Shown here piece after piece: positions 32,519-38,833 of a DNA stretch of 64,000 nucleotides (positions are counted from its first letter, which is position 1; every line of letters starts with the position of its first letter). The stretch spans positions 1-64,000 of the forward strand of contig JASHQI010000201.1 in NCBI GenBank assembly GCA_030037645.1. The letters run 5' to 3'. The translations under genes were made by a program, and so were the position numbers. Below the pieces are notes generated by a model, which was not told where the DNA came from, did not search any database, and saw only the letters and a program-made list of their open reading frames with translations. The DNA is from Xanthobacteraceae bacterium. Lineage in GTDB: Bacteria; Pseudomonadota; Alphaproteobacteria; Rhizobiales; Xanthobacteraceae.

Positions 32519-34453
32519 ATGATTGCTGCCAATCTCGAAGAAAGTATTCAGAACGCGACGAGTGCGCTTCTTCGCCAGCAGCGCTCCGATGGCCATTGGG
32601 TATTCGAACTGGAGGCTGACTGCACCATTCCTGCCGAATACGTATTGTTGCGGCATTATCTTGGCGAGCCCGTCGACGCGACGCTTGAGGCTAAAATCGC
32701 GGCCTATCTGCGTCGCACTCAGGGCACGCATGATGGCTGGCCGCTGTTTCAGGACGGCGATCTTGATATCAGCGCAACGGTGAAGGCCTACTTCGCTCTC
32801 AAGTTGATCGGCGATTCTGTGGAAGCCGACCACATGCGGAGGGCCCGCGAGGCTATTCGCGCTCGCGGCGGAGCCGAGCGTGCCAACGTGTTTACGCGGA
32901 TCATGTTTGCGTTGTTCGGTTTCAGTCCCTGGCGAGCATTGCCAGTATTGCCGATCGAAATCATGCTGCTCCCGAAATGGTTTCCATTTCATCTCGACAA
33001 AATTTCGTACTGGAGCCGGACCGTCATCGTTCCGTTGCTCGTCCTGCAGTTCAAGGAACCCAAGGCGCAGAATCCAAAGGGCGTGCGTATCGACGAGCTT
33101 TTTATCAAACCGCCCCACGCTCTCGGGCCGATACCCAAAGCTCCGCAGCAGAAGGCGTCGTGGTTCTGGTTCTTTCGCGGGGTCGACAACCTTTTGCGTT
33201 GGATACAGCCATCCTTTCCCAAGAATGTTCGTAAGCGCGCGATCGATCGTGCGGTCGCCTGGGTCGTCGAGCGCCTGAACGGCGAAGACGGCCTCGGTGC
33301 CATTTTCCCGGCGATGGCGAACAGCGTGATGATGTTTGACGCCCTCGGGTTTCCCGAAAGCCATCCGCCGCGCGCAATCGCGCGCAAGGCGATCGAAAAG
33401 CTGTTGGTGGTCCACGAAAATGAGGCTTATTGCCAGCCCTGTGTCTCGCCGATCTGGGACACCGGCCTCGCCTGTCACGCCCTCATGGAGACCGGCAGTG
33501 AGCCCGCGGTGGCTCAGGTCGAGCGGGGGCTCGCCTGGTTGGCGCCGAAACAGATTTTGGACGTGCGCGGCGACTGGATTGCGCGCAGGAGCACAGTGCG
33601 GCCTGGTGGCTGGGCCTTCCAATATGCCAATCCGCATTATCCCGATGTTGATGATACCGCCGTCGTCGCCATGGCCATGGATCGTCTACAGGACCAGTCC
33701 GGACGCAAGGAGTTCGATGCCAACATTGCGCGCGCGACAGAGTGGATTTTGGGCATGCAGAGCGCGAGCGGGGCGTGGGGTGCGTTCGATGCCGACAATG
33801 AATATCATTACCTCAATAATATCCCTTTTGCCGATCACGGAGCGCTACTCGATCCGCCAACTGAAGATGTGACGGCGCGCTGCATTTCGATGCTCGCGCA
33901 GTTCGGCGAGACAGTTGCAAGCAGCGGAGCCATTGCGAAGGCCGTCAGTTACCTGCGACGGCAGCAGCTAGCCGAAGGAAGTTGGTTTGGGCGCTGGGGC
34001 ATGAACTACATCTATGGCACCTGGTCGGTGCTGTGTGCGCTCAACGCCGCGGGCGTCGATCGTCGCGCGCCGGAAATCCACAAGGCGGTGCAGTGGCTCG
34101 TTTTGATTCAGAATGAGGATGGCGGCTGGGGCGAGGACGGGACAAGCTACAAGCTCGACTATCACGGCTATGAACGCGCGCCCAGCACCGCCTCGCAGAC
34201 GGCATGGGCGCTCCTTGGGCTCATGGCTGCGGGCGAAGTCGATCACCCTGCGGTCTCGCGTGGAATAAGATATCTCATGGACACGCAAGGCGCAGACGGC
34301 CTTTGGGCCGAACCGCGCTACACAGGGACCGGATTTCCGCGGGTGTTTTACCTGAGATATCATGGTTACTCGAAGTTTTTCCCACTTTGGTCCATAGCGC
34401 GTTACAGGAATCTCAAGGCCAGCAATACCCAGACCGTGACGCGAGGGATGTAG
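32519..34453 (+). CDS. shc: Squalene-hopene cyclase
   Basis: QRSDGHWVFELEADCTIPAEYVLL, DVDDTAVVAMAMD (DXDD region), several QW motifs (QSASGAWGAFD, QNEDGGWGED, QGADGLWAEPRYTGTGFPRVFYLRYHGYSKFFPLW). Confidence 0.96.
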   Translation: MIAANLEESIQNATSALLRQQRSDGHWVFELEADCTIPAEYVLLRHYLGEPVDATLEAKIAAYLRRTQGTHDGWPLFQDGDLDISATVKAYFALKLIGDSVEADHMRRAREAIRARGGAERANVFTRIMFALFGFSPWRALPVLPIEIMLLPKWFPFHLDKISYWSRTVIVPLLVLQFKEPKAQNPKGVRIDELFIKPPHALGPIPKAPQQKASWFWFFRGVDNLLRWIQPSFPKNVRKRAIDRAVAWVVERLNGEDGLGAIFPAMANSVMMFDALGFPESHPPRAIARKAIEKLLVVHENEAYCQPCVSPIWDTGLACHALMETGSEPAVAQVERGLAWLAPKQILDVRGDWIARRSTVRPGGWAFQYANPHYPDVDDTAVVAMAMDRLQDQSGRKEFDANIARATEWILGMQSASGAWGAFDADNEYHYLNNIPFADHGALLDPPTEDVTARCISMLAQFGETVASSGAIAKAVSYLRRQQLAEGSWFGRWGMNYIYGTWSVLCALNAAGVDRRAPEIHKAVQWLVLIQNEDGGWGEDGTSYKLDYHGYERAPSTASQTAWALLGLMAAGEVDHPAVSRGIRYLMDTQGADGLWAEPRYTGTGFPRVFYLRYHGYSKFFPLWSIARYRNLKASNTQTVTRGM

Positions 34454-35028: not shown

Positions 35029-37413
35029 TCACGGCGCGAGCGTTCTTGCAATACGGAAACCCAGGCTGCTGAGACGGGCTTCTCCGGGGGTGGTGAAACG
35101 GTTGGCGGCCCGAACAAGCTGCGGGGTGTCGAACCAAGACCCGCCGCGGACCATGTGGGCGCTGCAGCCTCCGGTCATCCACGCAGAGCCGTCCGCGGGC
35201 GCTCTGCTGTAGTCGTCGTGAGAGCAATCCTTTACCCATTGCCATACGTTGCCGCCCATATCGTAAAGGCCAAACGAGTTCGCGGGGAACGAGCCGACCG
35301 GTGCGGTTTTCTTGCCGTCCCACTGGCTCCCGCACCCATCGCAATTGGCGTTGCCAATGCCAATATCGGTGCCCCAGTAATAGGCCGTGGTGGTGCCGCC
35401 CCGTGCCGCGTATTCCCATTCCGCCTCGGACAGCAGGCGATACTCTTTTCCAGTCTGCTTTGAGAGCCAGCTCACGTATTCCTGGGCGCTTGCCCAATCG
35501 ATGTTGATGACCGGCCGGTCGCCGCGGCCCCAGTTCAGATCTTCGGGTCTGCTGGTGCATCCGCCAAGCCCGTAGCATGTATCCCACTCGTCGAACGTCA
35601 CCGCGAAGCGAGAAACCGCGAATGGGTGGGCAATCGTGACCAAATGCAGCGGGCCTTCGTTGTCATTTCGACCCTTTTCAGCGGCAGGCGACCCCATGAT
35701 GAATGATCCGGCGGGCACTACGACCATTTCTGGACAACGGGTGCAGTCTTGGAACCGGTCCTGCGGCTTGAGCGACTGTTCCTGTGCGACTGACAGCACC
35801 GAGCGCCGCAGATAAAGATCAGCCCATAATTGCAAGCGCAGCCTATTGGTCCAACTCGCGTAGGCAACGCCGGCACCACTGATCACGAGCAGGAGGCCGA
35901 TGACGGCGTATTGGACGAGGCGCTGGCGGCTGGCGCTGCGGCGACTGGCGGCGAGCAGCTTCTCGACCAGGCCGAAATTGCCGCCATAACGCTCGGCCCA
36001 GGTGCTGTTCACCTTGCGCTCCCGCCACCAGTCGGACCGCTCCGCGGTTGTAGCCGGTGAGAGGATACGGCGCTTATTCCGCTGAAAGCTTTTTGCTTCC
36101 ACGAGCAGCGAGCGCCAGATCAGCCCGTCGTCGAACTCGCGCTTGAGCCAACCATCCTGTGCGTTGGCGAGTCGTTTCCAGCAGCGGATCAGCGCCTCGT
36201 GGCCGATGTCGATGGGCGTTGCGTCGGCGATGGGTTGCGACGGATAAGGCGTGAGGAACGACACTCCCTCGCGGCGCAGCGCATCAACGATGCCGCGCAG
36301 CGTGTCGGCATCGGTGCCGGTCGCCGCGACCAGATCGCGAAACGTCTGCGGCCGGCGAATGGCCCTGCCCTCGACGTTCACGTCGGTCAGCGCGCGGAAC
36401 AGCCGCTCGACGGCGTCGCGGCGCCCCGCATCGGGCGCCGCGGCTTCTACCGCCGCATCCGCATGAGCGGAGAGCATCCGCGACAGCCCGCCCGCCGCTT
36501 CGAGCGGCGCTGCATCGATCACGATCTTGCCGCCGGACGACGCCGTGGCCGTCGCCTCATGCCACATCAGCATGAGGCCGTGCTGAATGAGCGGTAATTC
36601 GTCCTCGCGTCCACCGGCGTCGGCAATCAACCGCTCGGCGAGGTCGAGCGTCACTTCGCCGCCGTAAAGCTGGGCCGGACGCCGGATCGCCCGCAACATA
36701 GCGTCGCGCTCCATGCGTGGCACAAGATATTGGGTACGGTTAATGGTTTCGGCGAGGCCGGAAAAGCGCGCGCAGTCGCCAAGAAATTCCGAGCGCATGG
36801 TGACGATAACATGCACCGTCGCGGCTTGCTGATCCTGACCGGCGGCGGCACGTTCTGCCGCCTCGGCATCGCCGCGCACCAGCAGATCGACGAATAGCTC
36901 CGCCTCTTCGCGGCTCGTTTCCTTCTCGAAGCGAAACATCTCCTCAAACTGATCGACCAAGATGCAAAGACGCTGTCGTTCGAGGCCTTTAAGCGAACTG
37001 ACGACGGCGGATAATGTGGCGCCGCGGCGGTTGAACCGGCCGACGATCTGGCCGACGCACTCGGCATCGTCGGCATTGCCGTCGAGCCGCGCCAGTTCCC
37101 TGGCGAGGTTCCACAGCGGCCCCCCGGACGGCCGCATTGTGCAGGTCCGCCACGGCGCACCGGCGCGCCGATGCTGCCGCGCGAGCTTGGGCAACACGCC
37201 GGCGCGCACCAGCGACGACTTTCCCGCGCCGGAAGAGCCGTGAATGACCACCAGCCGATGGCTGGCGAGCCGATCGATCACCTCGTCGATCATGGCTTCG
37301 CGGCCGAAGAAGATCGACCATTCGTCGGCTTCGAACGGCCGCAGGCCCGGATAGGGGTATTTCGGCCGCGCCTCGACGTGAGGCGTCAAATTCGCAGACC
37401 ATTCCGCGCTCAT
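35029..37413 (-). CDS. nSTAND1-type STAND NTPase with single TM and C-terminal FGE-sulfatase (SUMF1)-like domain
   Basis: YPGLRPFEADEWSIFFGRE, Walker A HGSSGAGKSS, Walker B CILVDQFEEMFRF, TM LVQYAVIGLLLVISGAGVAYASW, then CPEMVVVPAGSFIMGSP...RLLSEAEWEYAARGGT...GNVWQWVKD...VRGGSW...LGFRIART. Confidence 0.92.
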   Translation of the reverse strand: MSAEWSANLTPHVEARPKYPYPGLRPFEADEWSIFFGREAMIDEVIDRLASHRLVVIHGSSGAGKSSLVRAGVLPKLARQHRRAGAPWRTCTMRPSGGPLWNLARELARLDGNADDAECVGQIVGRFNRRGATLSAVVSSLKGLERQRLCILVDQFEEMFRFEKETSREEAELFVDLLVRGDAEAAERAAAGQDQQAATVHVIVTMRSEFLGDCARFSGLAETINRTQYLVPRMERDAMLRAIRRPAQLYGGEVTLDLAERLIADAGGREDELPLIQHGLMLMWHEATATASSGGKIVIDAAPLEAAGGLSRMLSAHADAAVEAAAPDAGRRDAVERLFRALTDVNVEGRAIRRPQTFRDLVAATGTDADTLRGIVDALRREGVSFLTPYPSQPIADATPIDIGHEALIRCWKRLANAQDGWLKREFDDGLIWRSLLVEAKSFQRNKRRILSPATTAERSDWWRERKVNSTWAERYGGNFGLVEKLLAASRRSASRQRLVQYAVIGLLLVISGAGVAYASWTNRLRLQLWADLYLRRSVLSVAQEQSLKPQDRFQDCTRCPEMVVVPAGSFIMGSPAAEKGRNDNEGPLHLVTIAHPFAVSRFAVTFDEWDTCYGLGGCTSRPEDLNWGRGDRPVINIDWASAQEYVSWLSKQTGKEYRLLSEAEWEYAARGGTTTAYYWGTDIGIGNANCDGCGSQWDGKKTAPVGSFPANSFGLYDMGGNVWQWVKDCSHDDYSRAPADGSAWMTGGCSAHMVRGGSWFDTPQLVRAANRFTTPGEARLSSLGFRIARTLAP

Positions 37414-38519
37414 AACGCGGTCGCCAGCGGGGCACGCGCCTGGTCGAGCCAGCCGTGGAATTTGCCGCGCCAATCATCGTTGGCGAGGTCGAAGCGCTCG
37501 ATGCCGAAGCCGGACACATCCACCGGAAGCAACTGGCCGGACCGGTCGAGCACCGCGCAGGGTAGCGGCGCGCCACGCGCATTTTGAATTCGCTCGCGCT
37601 CATCGACGCCGATTTCCCATAGGTCGTCGATGAACCGCTCGTCGGCGTCGCTGCGCAAAAGCGCCATCGCGTCGCAACGTTTCGCGGCCTCGATACGGGC
37701 GCGGCTTTGCCGCGCCCAGTCGGCGATGTCGCGCCCCGGATCGACCACCGGGCTGGTCGCGGGAATACCATCCTGTAACAGGACGTGCTTGACCTCGTCG
37801 CAGACCGCCGCCTGTTCGGGCCGTGCATGCAAATAGACGCGCCGCGGCCCGGTCGGTGTCGCGGCTACCGCTGGCGCTTCAAGCTTGGCGCGGCGTTCGG
37901 CATTGATGCGCAGCTCGCGCAGTCGCCGCATCAAGGCGGTCTGCAGCCGGCCCAGTTCCTGAACATAGCGATCACGGTGCGTGTCGGCGCCGCGCCAGCC
38001 GTAGGGCATCGAAGAATCCTGGCTGTCGTGGAACTGAAATCCCGGCAGCGGATGACCGCGGCTGTCACGCAAAAAATCCGGCCACCTCGTTTGGTCGGTC
38101 TGCAGAGCGCGTATGACGAACACGCGGCCATGATCGCGTGTCCGGTCCTCGACCTGCTGTTTGAACCATTCCAGTTCGTCCCTGCACCACGTCGAGGCGA
38201 GGTAGCGCGGCGACATCATGATCATCAGGATGCCGGAATGACTGACCTTGGCTCGCAATTCGTCGGTGAGCTGGATGGTCGGATCAATCTGCTCATCGCG
38301 CCAGATGTGCAAATCGTCGAATTCAGTATCGACCAGCCGGATATCGGTTTCCAGCTTGCGTATCAGGTCCAGCGTCCAATCCTTGAGCGGCGCGTCAACG
38401 TCGCCGGAACGGATGCCATGCGAATAGCTGACGAAGGCGTCATATTCGAAATACGGCCGGAGAAATCCCATTCCCCCTCGACCCCATTCGCGGTGCCACG
38501 CCGCACTTGGCATAGTCAT
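37410..38519 (-). CDS. TIR domain protein with C-terminal second TIR-like region
   Basis: YDAFVSYSHG...IWRDEQIDPTIQLTDELRAKVSHSGILMIMMSPRYLASTWCRDELEWF; stop overlaps the STAND gene start (ATGA). Actual start may be MGFLRPYFEYDAF at ~38471. Confidence 0.9.
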   Translation of the reverse strand: MTMPSAAWHREWGRGGMGFLRPYFEYDAFVSYSHGIRSGDVDAPLKDWTLDLIRKLETDIRLVDTEFDDLHIWRDEQIDPTIQLTDELRAKVSHSGILMIMMSPRYLASTWCRDELEWFKQQVEDRTRDHGRVFVIRALQTDQTRWPDFLRDSRGHPLPGFQFHDSQDSSMPYGWRGADTHRDRYVQELGRLQTALMRRLRELRINAERRAKLEAPAVAATPTGPRRVYLHARPEQAAVCDEVKHVLLQDGIPATSPVVDPGRDIADWARQSRARIEAAKRCDAMALLRSDADERFIDDLWEIGVDERERIQNARGAPLPCAVLDRSGQLLPVDVSGFGIERFDLANDDWRGKFHGWLDQARAPLATAL

Positions 38520-38833
38520 CCATTATAGCGCCCGGCTTGCTACTGTCGAGGCCCAGTTTTGCACTTCCTAGAGCTTCAATAGGAGAACCGCGTCAATGGC
38601 AATGGCTCCTGCGGACCAATTACAATCTCATGGCGCGCGAATCCCGGGCGGCGGCATCGTGTACCAACACAGGCCCTGCACGTGCGTCGTCGGTGCGATT
38701 TGCATCCTGGCTGGCGTAACAATCGTCGCACCGGCGTTTGCAGCACATCTGCTCAGACTGTGTAGACAACTCAAGCGTTGGCAACCGTCCGATGACTGCC
38801 TCAGCCTCAGGTAATTCCCTTTGTTGAATCCGT

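What the first reader, a model, noticed from the sequence alone, without database searches (positions are those of the whole stretch)
35029..38519. Two-gene TIR + membrane STAND-NTPase/FGE-like operon: candidate conflict/immune system
Sequence shows a TIR protein (YDAFVSYSHG...SPRYLASTWCRDELEWF, with the Glu expected of NADase TIRs) whose stop overlaps by 4 nt (ATGA, 37410-37413) the start of a STAND NTPase (Walker A GSSGAGKSS, Walker B LVDQFEEMF). That protein then has one TM helix and an FGE-sulfatase-like domain. Established: TIRs act as NAD-consuming effectors, STAND NTPases as sensors/switches, and TIR/nSTAND/FGE combinations have been predicted as bacterial conflict systems by comparative genomics. 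Inference: an NTP-gated TIR effector driven by a membrane sensor whose FGE-like head lies outside the cytoplasm. It sits inside a surface-polysaccharide locus, so it may monitor envelope state or phage adsorption.
Basis: partly seen in the sequence, partly recalled or inferred. Interest (0 to 1): 0.85.

Follow-up and report, generated by a model that had tools for sequence, protein, structure and literature searches.

The report
Membrane TIR-STAND receptor with swappable head
Two overlapping genes in a soil alphaproteobacterium encode a probable NAD-destroying TIR enzyme and its membrane-anchored switch protein, whose outward-facing sensor head has been exchanged between relatives while the rest stayed the same, as expected of a bacterial immune receptor that keeps changing what it recognises.

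Summary
A TIR gene (stop 37410; likely start 38471 rather than 38519) overlaps by 4 nt an nSTAND1 NTPase with one TM helix and a C-terminal FGE-fold head. Topology evidence (positive-inside; eight cysteines conserved only beyond the TM) puts the head outside the cytoplasm. The head lacks the FGE catalytic cysteines and is closest to PvdO, so it is a binding head rather than a formylglycine enzyme. A stand-alone TIR directly before nSTAND1 recurs across Pseudomonadota, with FGE or WD40 sensors. The same genome has a single-chain TIR-nSTAND1-TM-FGE relative. The architecture belongs to the STAND-FGS counter-invader systems predicted by Kaur et al. 2021. New here: against its 82%-identical sister, identity breaks at codon ~491, just before the TM; nSTAND1 trees unite the two, but the AU test rejects uniting their heads (p=0.0002). 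TIR and engine identities correlate at 0.99 in fused relatives, engine and head at only 0.16-0.24. So heads appear to be exchanged as cassettes. Immune function and NADase activity are inferred. The polysaccharide location looks incidental.

The parts
38522..38549 (-). sigma-70-type promoter-like site TCGACA-N16-TATAAT (11 of 12) just before the pair
   Evidence: consensus match only (1 found, 0.9 expected from shuffles of the region)
37410..38471 (-). TIR gene from its likely start (SD GTCGAGGGGGA before ATG 38471); the ORF extends to an ATG at 38519
38025..38444 (-). TIR domain (ORF residues 26-165)
   Evidence: TIR_2 38.7 bits; AlphaFold model matches RUN1 TIR with TM 0.62 normalised by the target
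38175..38177 (-). codon of Glu115, predicted NADase catalytic Glu (WC-x-x-E)
   Evidence: invariant in 7 stand-alone TIR partners; lies in the motif aligned with plant TIRs
37437..37844 (-). second, degenerate TIR-like alpha/beta domain (ORF residues 226-361), without the WC-x-x-E motif
   Evidence: alternating beta-alpha topology in the model; hhalign to TIRs of fused relatives E 3.7e-5, probability 71%
37410..37413 (-). ATGA overlap of the TIR stop and STAND start
   Evidence: the same 4-nt overlap in L047, L050, L067, L068, L069
35029..37413 (-). nSTAND1-TM-FGE gene, 794 aa
36070..37356 (-). nSTAND1 NTPase domain (residues 20-448)
   Evidence: PF20703 272 bits
37213..37239 (-). Walker A GSSGAGKSS (residues 59-67)
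   Evidence: G59, S61, G62, G64, K65, S66, S67 invariant in 14 homologues
36934..36960 (-). Walker B region LVDQFEEMF (residues 152-160)
   Evidence: D154, Q155, E157, E158 invariant in 14 homologues
35941..35943 (-). best single breakpoint (codon 491) between conserved engine and exchanged TM-neck-head cassette, against the sister gene in L047
   Evidence: nucleotide identity 81% before, 60% after; log-likelihood gain 62
35851..35919 (-). single transmembrane helix (residues 499-521), N-in/C-out
   Evidence: hydropathy; positive-inside and cysteine pattern in 14 homologues
35038..35760 (-). PvdO-like FGE/C-type-lectin-fold head (residues 552-792), predicted extracytoplasmic
   Evidence: PF03781 187.8 bits; PvdO 5hha E 3.3e-61 and TM 0.78 normalised by the target; 8 conserved Cys; no FGE catalytic Cys

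Best explanation
The pair is a two-piece, membrane-anchored, NLR-like receptor. The PvdO/C-type-lectin-fold head of the STAND protein lies outside the cytoplasm and binds a ligand. The signal passes through one TM helix to the cytoplasmic nSTAND1 NTPase, which assembles when it binds NTP. The assembly gathers and activates the co-translated tandem-TIR protein, whose first TIR domain cleaves NAD+ and stops or kills the cell. TIR and nSTAND1 evolve together as a chassis, while the TM-neck-head segment is exchanged between chassis, changing what is recognised. Most likely use: defence against phage or other envelope-contacting invaders. Shown by sequence: domains, operon, recurrence, topology evidence, head exchange. 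Inferred: NADase activity, NTP-gated assembly, ligand, defence role.
For: Domains far above cut-offs. Catalytic Glu invariant in seven partner TIRs, fold of plant NADase TIRs. A stand-alone TIR directly before nSTAND1 recurs: 4-nt overlap in L047, L050, L067, L068, L069; 16-nt gap in L070; also in another class and on a mobilizable Caballeronia plasmid. TIR fused to nSTAND1-TM-FGE in the same genome and in nine other relatives. Topology: K+R/D+E of 88/14 before the TM against 28/24 after it; eight conserved Cys after the TM, none conserved before it, over 14 homologues. Chassis and head have different histories: nSTAND1 of window and L047 grouped 100/99, heads not (AU p=0.0002); fourfold-site identity 62% against 38%, Fisher p=0.00017, breakpoint at codon 491; window head 50-61% identical to every other head whether engines share 82% or 26%. 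The pair is patchy: sister copy in 1 of 19 congeners, at another locus. Published inference: STAND-FGS proteins with TIR effectors are predicted counter-invader systems (PMC8195603).
Against: No experiment. No defence gene was recognised beside the pair. No DGR in the genome. PADLOC gives only weak ThsB and AAA hits. The ligand is unknown. How the stand-alone TIR docks is unknown, since the STAND has only about 19 residues before nSTAND1 and so no room for an adaptor domain. The structure models are of moderate confidence (mean pLDDT 71 and 76), and the sequences come largely from metagenome-assembled genomes.
Confidence: 0.58

Rival explanations
1. Envelope-state or developmental signalling receptor: the same machine, but the head reads an endogenous cell-wall, polysaccharide or redox cue, and the TIR makes a signal or mild NAD change rather than causing abortive infection.
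For: Outward-facing head; the nearest solved relative is PvdO; another nSTAND1 protein of the genome carries a CHASE2 domain, a family known as extracytoplasmic sensors; one relative has a nucleotide cyclase in place of the TIR (L053).
Against: Patchy presence within the genus, non-syntenic copies and head exchange are unusual for a housekeeping regulator.
Confidence: 0.22
2. Self/non-self or kin-recognition system: polymorphic heads read molecules of neighbouring cells and trigger TIR toxicity.
For: Exchange of outward heads on a constant toxic chassis.
Against: No secretion, contact or cognate ligand gene was found; related systems are predicted to be anti-invader (PMC8195603).
Confidence: 0.1
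3. The head is an enzyme (PvdO-like oxidase or formylglycine generator) and the STAND/TIR regulates it, rather than the head being a sensor.
For: Good match to PvdO, an enzyme (43% identity in the structural alignment).
Against: Both FGE catalytic Cys are absent; the sensor position is taken by WD40 in the closest chassis relatives.
Confidence: 0.07
4. The apparent head exchange is only fast divergence of an old shared head, or an assembly chimera.
For: Both sequences are from metagenome-assembled genomes; all heads lie at 47-71% identity to each other.
Against: Synonymous sites break at the same point; the AU test rejects a common head ancestor for the pair; the L047 head is 69% identical to a head on a distant chassis; both ORFs are full length and in frame with the same architecture.
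Confidence: 0.1

Closest known systems
STAND NTPase-FGS (nSTAND1-FGE) counter-invader systems, Kaur et al. 2021 (PMC8195603)
   Same: nSTAND1 plus FGE/C-type-lectin domain linked to a TIR effector; several variants per genome.
   Different: The TIR is a separate, overlapping gene with no shared death-like or EAD adaptor on the STAND; one TM puts the head outside; no DGR; the partner is a tandem TIR; evidence of head exchange.
TIR-nSTAND1-TM-FGE single-chain proteins of Xanthobacteraceae (P0003 of this genome, L048, L049 and others)
   Same: Same domain order, TM position, eight head cysteines.
   Different: TIR fused, of a different TIR subtype, and nSTAND1 from a distant clade (26-29% identity).
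Stand-alone TIR + nSTAND1-WD40 operons (L067/L068, L069, L070, Caballeronia pSBC2-4)
   Same: Same two-gene order; the L067/L068 chassis is the closest apart from the sister (100/100).
   Different: WD40 repeats take the place of the TM-FGE head.
DGR-diversified STAND-CLec sensors (PMC10907252)
   Same: STAND with C-type-lectin-fold sensor, sometimes a TIR effector and a periplasmic sensor.
   Different: No reverse transcriptase or template repeat found in this genome.
Avs antiviral STAND proteins
   Same: Effector-STAND-sensor logic.
   Different: As described for Avs (cited in PMC10907252), single-chain proteins with TPR-type sensors; no family match beyond the P-loop.

Membership tests
STAND-FGS counter-invader systems (PMC8195603) | STAND NTPase domain (nSTAND1 clade) | tested here: met
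   PF20703 272 bits
STAND-FGS counter-invader systems (PMC8195603) | C-terminal FGS/FGE domain | tested here: met
   PF03781 187.8 bits
STAND-FGS counter-invader systems (PMC8195603) | linked effector such as TIR (fused, or on a neighbouring gene) | tested here: met
   overlapping TIR gene, same pairing in L047 and L050; fused in 10 relatives including one in this genome
STAND-FGS counter-invader systems (PMC8195603) | counter-invader activity | not testable with these tools
   predicted, not shown, for the published family as well
bDLD3-linked TIR / STAND-FGS gene pairs (sub-type in PMC8195603) | the same death-like/EAD adaptor on both proteins | tested here: not met
   nSTAND1 starts at residue 20; no adaptor domain found on either protein
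DGR-diversified CLec sensors (PMC10907252) | reverse transcriptase and template repeat | tested here: not met
   no RVT_1 in the 90%-complete genome; only weak partial matches to the 3' end of the gene
NADase TIR domains | catalytic Glu in the WC-x-x-E region | tested here: met
   E115 invariant in 7 partners; motif aligned with plant TIRs
NADase TIR domains | NAD+ cleavage | not testable with these tools
   needs an enzyme assay
Formylglycine-generating enzyme | active-site Cys pair | tested here: not met
   GGSWFDTPQLVR aligns with GGSFLCHESYCNRYR; both Cys absent
Thoeris | recognised ThsB-type TIR with a ThsA partner | tested here: not met
   ThsB hits only E about 0.01; no ThsA-like gene; the partner is nSTAND1
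Avs / antiviral STAND | single chain of effector, STAND and repeat sensor | tested here: not met
   split TIR; FGE head; Avs4 match E 0.43, P-loop only

The most novel reading that the evidence does not exclude
Bacteria hold a family of membrane NLR-like receptors in which a constant TIR+nSTAND1 chassis is re-armed by recombination of a TM-neck-head cassette: a combinatorial, envelope-facing innate receptor repertoire made without a diversity-generating retroelement.
Probability: 0.45. Interest if true: 0.78.

Novelty: new variant of a known kind. Interest (0 to 1): 0.56.

Why it matters
Most characterised bacterial STAND immune proteins sense inside the cytoplasm. A split, membrane-spanning TIR-STAND whose outward head is exchanged between chassis would be a bacterial parallel to cell-surface immune receptors. 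It makes a direct test possible: swap the head and see whether specificity follows. It would also show a way to diversify recognition that does not need a DGR.

Tried and rejected
Thoeris and Avs membership: weak hits only. Formylglycine enzyme: catalytic Cys absent. DGR-driven head diversification in this genome: no RVT_1, no template repeat. Function tied to the polysaccharide locus: sister pair elsewhere, local context rearranged. Phage-borne copies: no P0002 relative in 50,697 phage records or IMG/VR. Plasmid-borne close copies: none, though TIR + nSTAND1-WD40 is on a Caballeronia plasmid. The hhalign match of the second domain to TIRs is moderate (probability 71%) and found against one TIR subtype only, so 'second TIR-like domain' is a fold-level claim. 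Foldseek on the whole TIR protein did not separate hits to the two domains. Genome counts for P0002 are lower bounds, because only the top first-look candidates of each genome were scored.

Full report
WHAT IS THERE. On the minus strand, a TIR gene (stop at 37410) overlaps by ATGA (37410-37413) a 794-aa STAND gene (35029-37413). Pfam finds nSTAND1 (residues 20-448, 272 bits) and FGE-sulfatase (560-790, 187.8 bits) in the second protein and TIR_2 (38.7 bits) in the first. The TIR probably begins at 38471 rather than 38519. The downstream ATG has an SD-like GTCGAGGGGGA, the sister gene has GTCGAGGGAGA at the same place, and M17 is invariant in homologues. The upstream ATG lies 3 nt beyond the TATAAT of a TCGACA-N16-TATAAT promoter-like site. 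That promoter match is one where about 0.9 is expected by chance, so it is suggestive only. The unit stands apart from the next gene on the same strand by about 310 bp and converges with a small gene on the other side.

THE TIR PROTEIN. The first domain has the plant-type WC-x-x-E motif, with E115 invariant in seven partner TIRs. The AlphaFold model (mean pLDDT 71) matches TIRs of plant NLRs (RUN1, TM 0.62 normalised by the target). After a long helix (182-214) comes a second beta-alpha-beta domain (about 226-361). Its profile aligns with the TIRs of fused relatives (hhalign E 3.7e-5, probability 71%) but lacks the WC-x-x-E motif. I read it as a degenerate TIR-like domain, perhaps a docking or assembly module (inference). 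In L050 the partner TIR protein also has a second NADase-fold domain: a weak, below-cut-off match to DUF4062, a family reported as TIR-like NADases in antiphage defence (PMC13174449).

TOPOLOGY AND HEAD. One TM helix (499-521). Over 14 homologues the 15 residues before the TM hold 88 K/R and 14 D/E, those after it 28 and 24. Eight cysteines are conserved after the TM (12-14 of 14 proteins each), none before it, and one pair (691/694) is lost together in the single exception. This fits a cytoplasmic NTPase and a disulfide-bonded extracytoplasmic head. The head is closest to PvdO (E 3.3e-61; TM 0.78 normalised by the target), and the two FGE catalytic cysteines are missing. A binding role is therefore more likely than catalysis (inference).

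IS THE PAIR REAL? Yes. A stand-alone TIR directly before nSTAND1 occurs in L047 (same genus, 78% TIR identity, FGE head), L050 (same genus, FGE head), L067/L068 (another family, WD40), L069 (another family, WD40) and L070 (WD40). Most keep the same 4-nt overlap; L070 has a 16-nt gap. It also occurs in another class (L124) and on the mobilizable Caballeronia plasmid pSBC2-4, where a DUF4231 gene, a TIR gene and an nSTAND1-WD40 gene lie in a row near an IS3 transposase. In ten relatives, including one in this same genome (P0003), TIR is fused to nSTAND1-TM-FGE in one chain. In one relative (L053) a nucleotide cyclase takes the TIR's place. The exact P0002-type pair is rare and patchy: one other congener, at a non-syntenic place.

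HEAD EXCHANGE. Against L047 the TIR and nSTAND1 are 83% and 82% identical, but the TM is 27%, the neck 37% and the head 59%. Nucleotide identity falls from 81% to 60% with the best break at codon 491 (log-likelihood gain 62). Fourfold-site identity falls from 62% (147/238) to 38% (34/89), Fisher p=0.00017. dS is 0.62 in the engine and 1.9 in the head, with low dN/dS in both (0.18 and 0.17), so this is not just faster amino-acid change. nSTAND1 trees put the window with L047 (100/99) and next with the WD40 pair L067/L068 (100/100), away from the fused FGE proteins. In the head tree, L047 goes with heads on distant fused chassis (95/90; 69% identity to L031), and a tree holding window and L047 heads together is rejected (p-AU 0.0002). 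Across relatives TIR and engine identity correlate at 0.99 (fused set), engine and head at only 0.16-0.24. The window head is 50-61% identical to every other head, whether the engines share 82% or 26%. The simplest reading is that the TM-neck-head segment moves between chassis by recombination. Direction and donor are unknown. The sequences are from metagenome-assembled genomes, but both ORFs are full length and in frame and the pattern is family-wide.

MECHANISM. Ligand binding to the outward head, transmission through one TM, NTP-driven nSTAND1 assembly, clustering of the tandem-TIR protein, NAD+ cleavage, growth arrest or death. Sequence supports the layout. The NADase step, the NTP gate and defence are inferred from the families. 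The rivals (envelope or developmental signalling, kin recognition, enzymatic head) are not excluded.

CONTEXT. The genome holds four nSTAND1 proteins over the cut-off, with different N-terminal or neighbouring effectors and sensors: this pair; the TIR-FGE fusion; a protein with an FVSSPSDV N-terminus (DUF4062-like to the eye, no Pfam call), nSTAND1 and CHASE2; and a SIR2 / nSTAND1 / patatin gene row. The squalene-hopene cyclase next to the pair is, in many congeners, in a hopanoid cluster instead, so the polysaccharide neighbourhood is probably incidental.

KNOWN OR NEW? Kaur et al. 2021 defined nSTAND1 and predicted STAND-FGS systems with TIR and other effectors as counter-invader systems; DGRs diversify some such heads (PMC8195603, PMC10907252). 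This locus is a variant of that kind: split, without the shared adaptor, membrane-spanning, with a tandem-TIR partner and without a DGR. I found no description of head exchange in the papers searched, though the library does not cover all journals.

Noticed in passing
L073:6662-11315 (G000:C325): SIR2_2 gene, nSTAND1 with weak HEAT matches, and patatin-like phospholipase in a row; the last two overlap by 4 nt. A possible three-gene defence operon in the same genome.
   Followed up: partly
L072:7316-10945 (G000:C15): 1209-aa protein with an FVSSPSDV N-terminus (looks DUF4062-like), nSTAND1 and CHASE2: another nSTAND1 protein with a domain known as an extracytoplasmic sensor.
   Followed up: partly
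L053:5711-8677: Class III nucleotide cyclase fused to nSTAND1-TM-FGE on an engine 71-72% identical to TIR-bearing ones: the effector end is exchanged too.
   Followed up: partly
L048:4635-5384 and L125:137-1870: DUF4231 genes (with SLATT matches in L048) beside a TIR-nSTAND1-FGE fusion and beside a TIR + nSTAND1-WD40 pair.
   Followed up: no
window 32519-34453: Squalene-hopene cyclase gene is away from the HpnH-like, IspH-like and MMPL-transporter-like neighbours it has in many congeners.
   Followed up: partly
L025, L027, L028, L034: FGE-only proteins of about 330-346 aa in another genus carry the heads nearest to the window's (60-62%); possible donors or partners.
   Followed up: no
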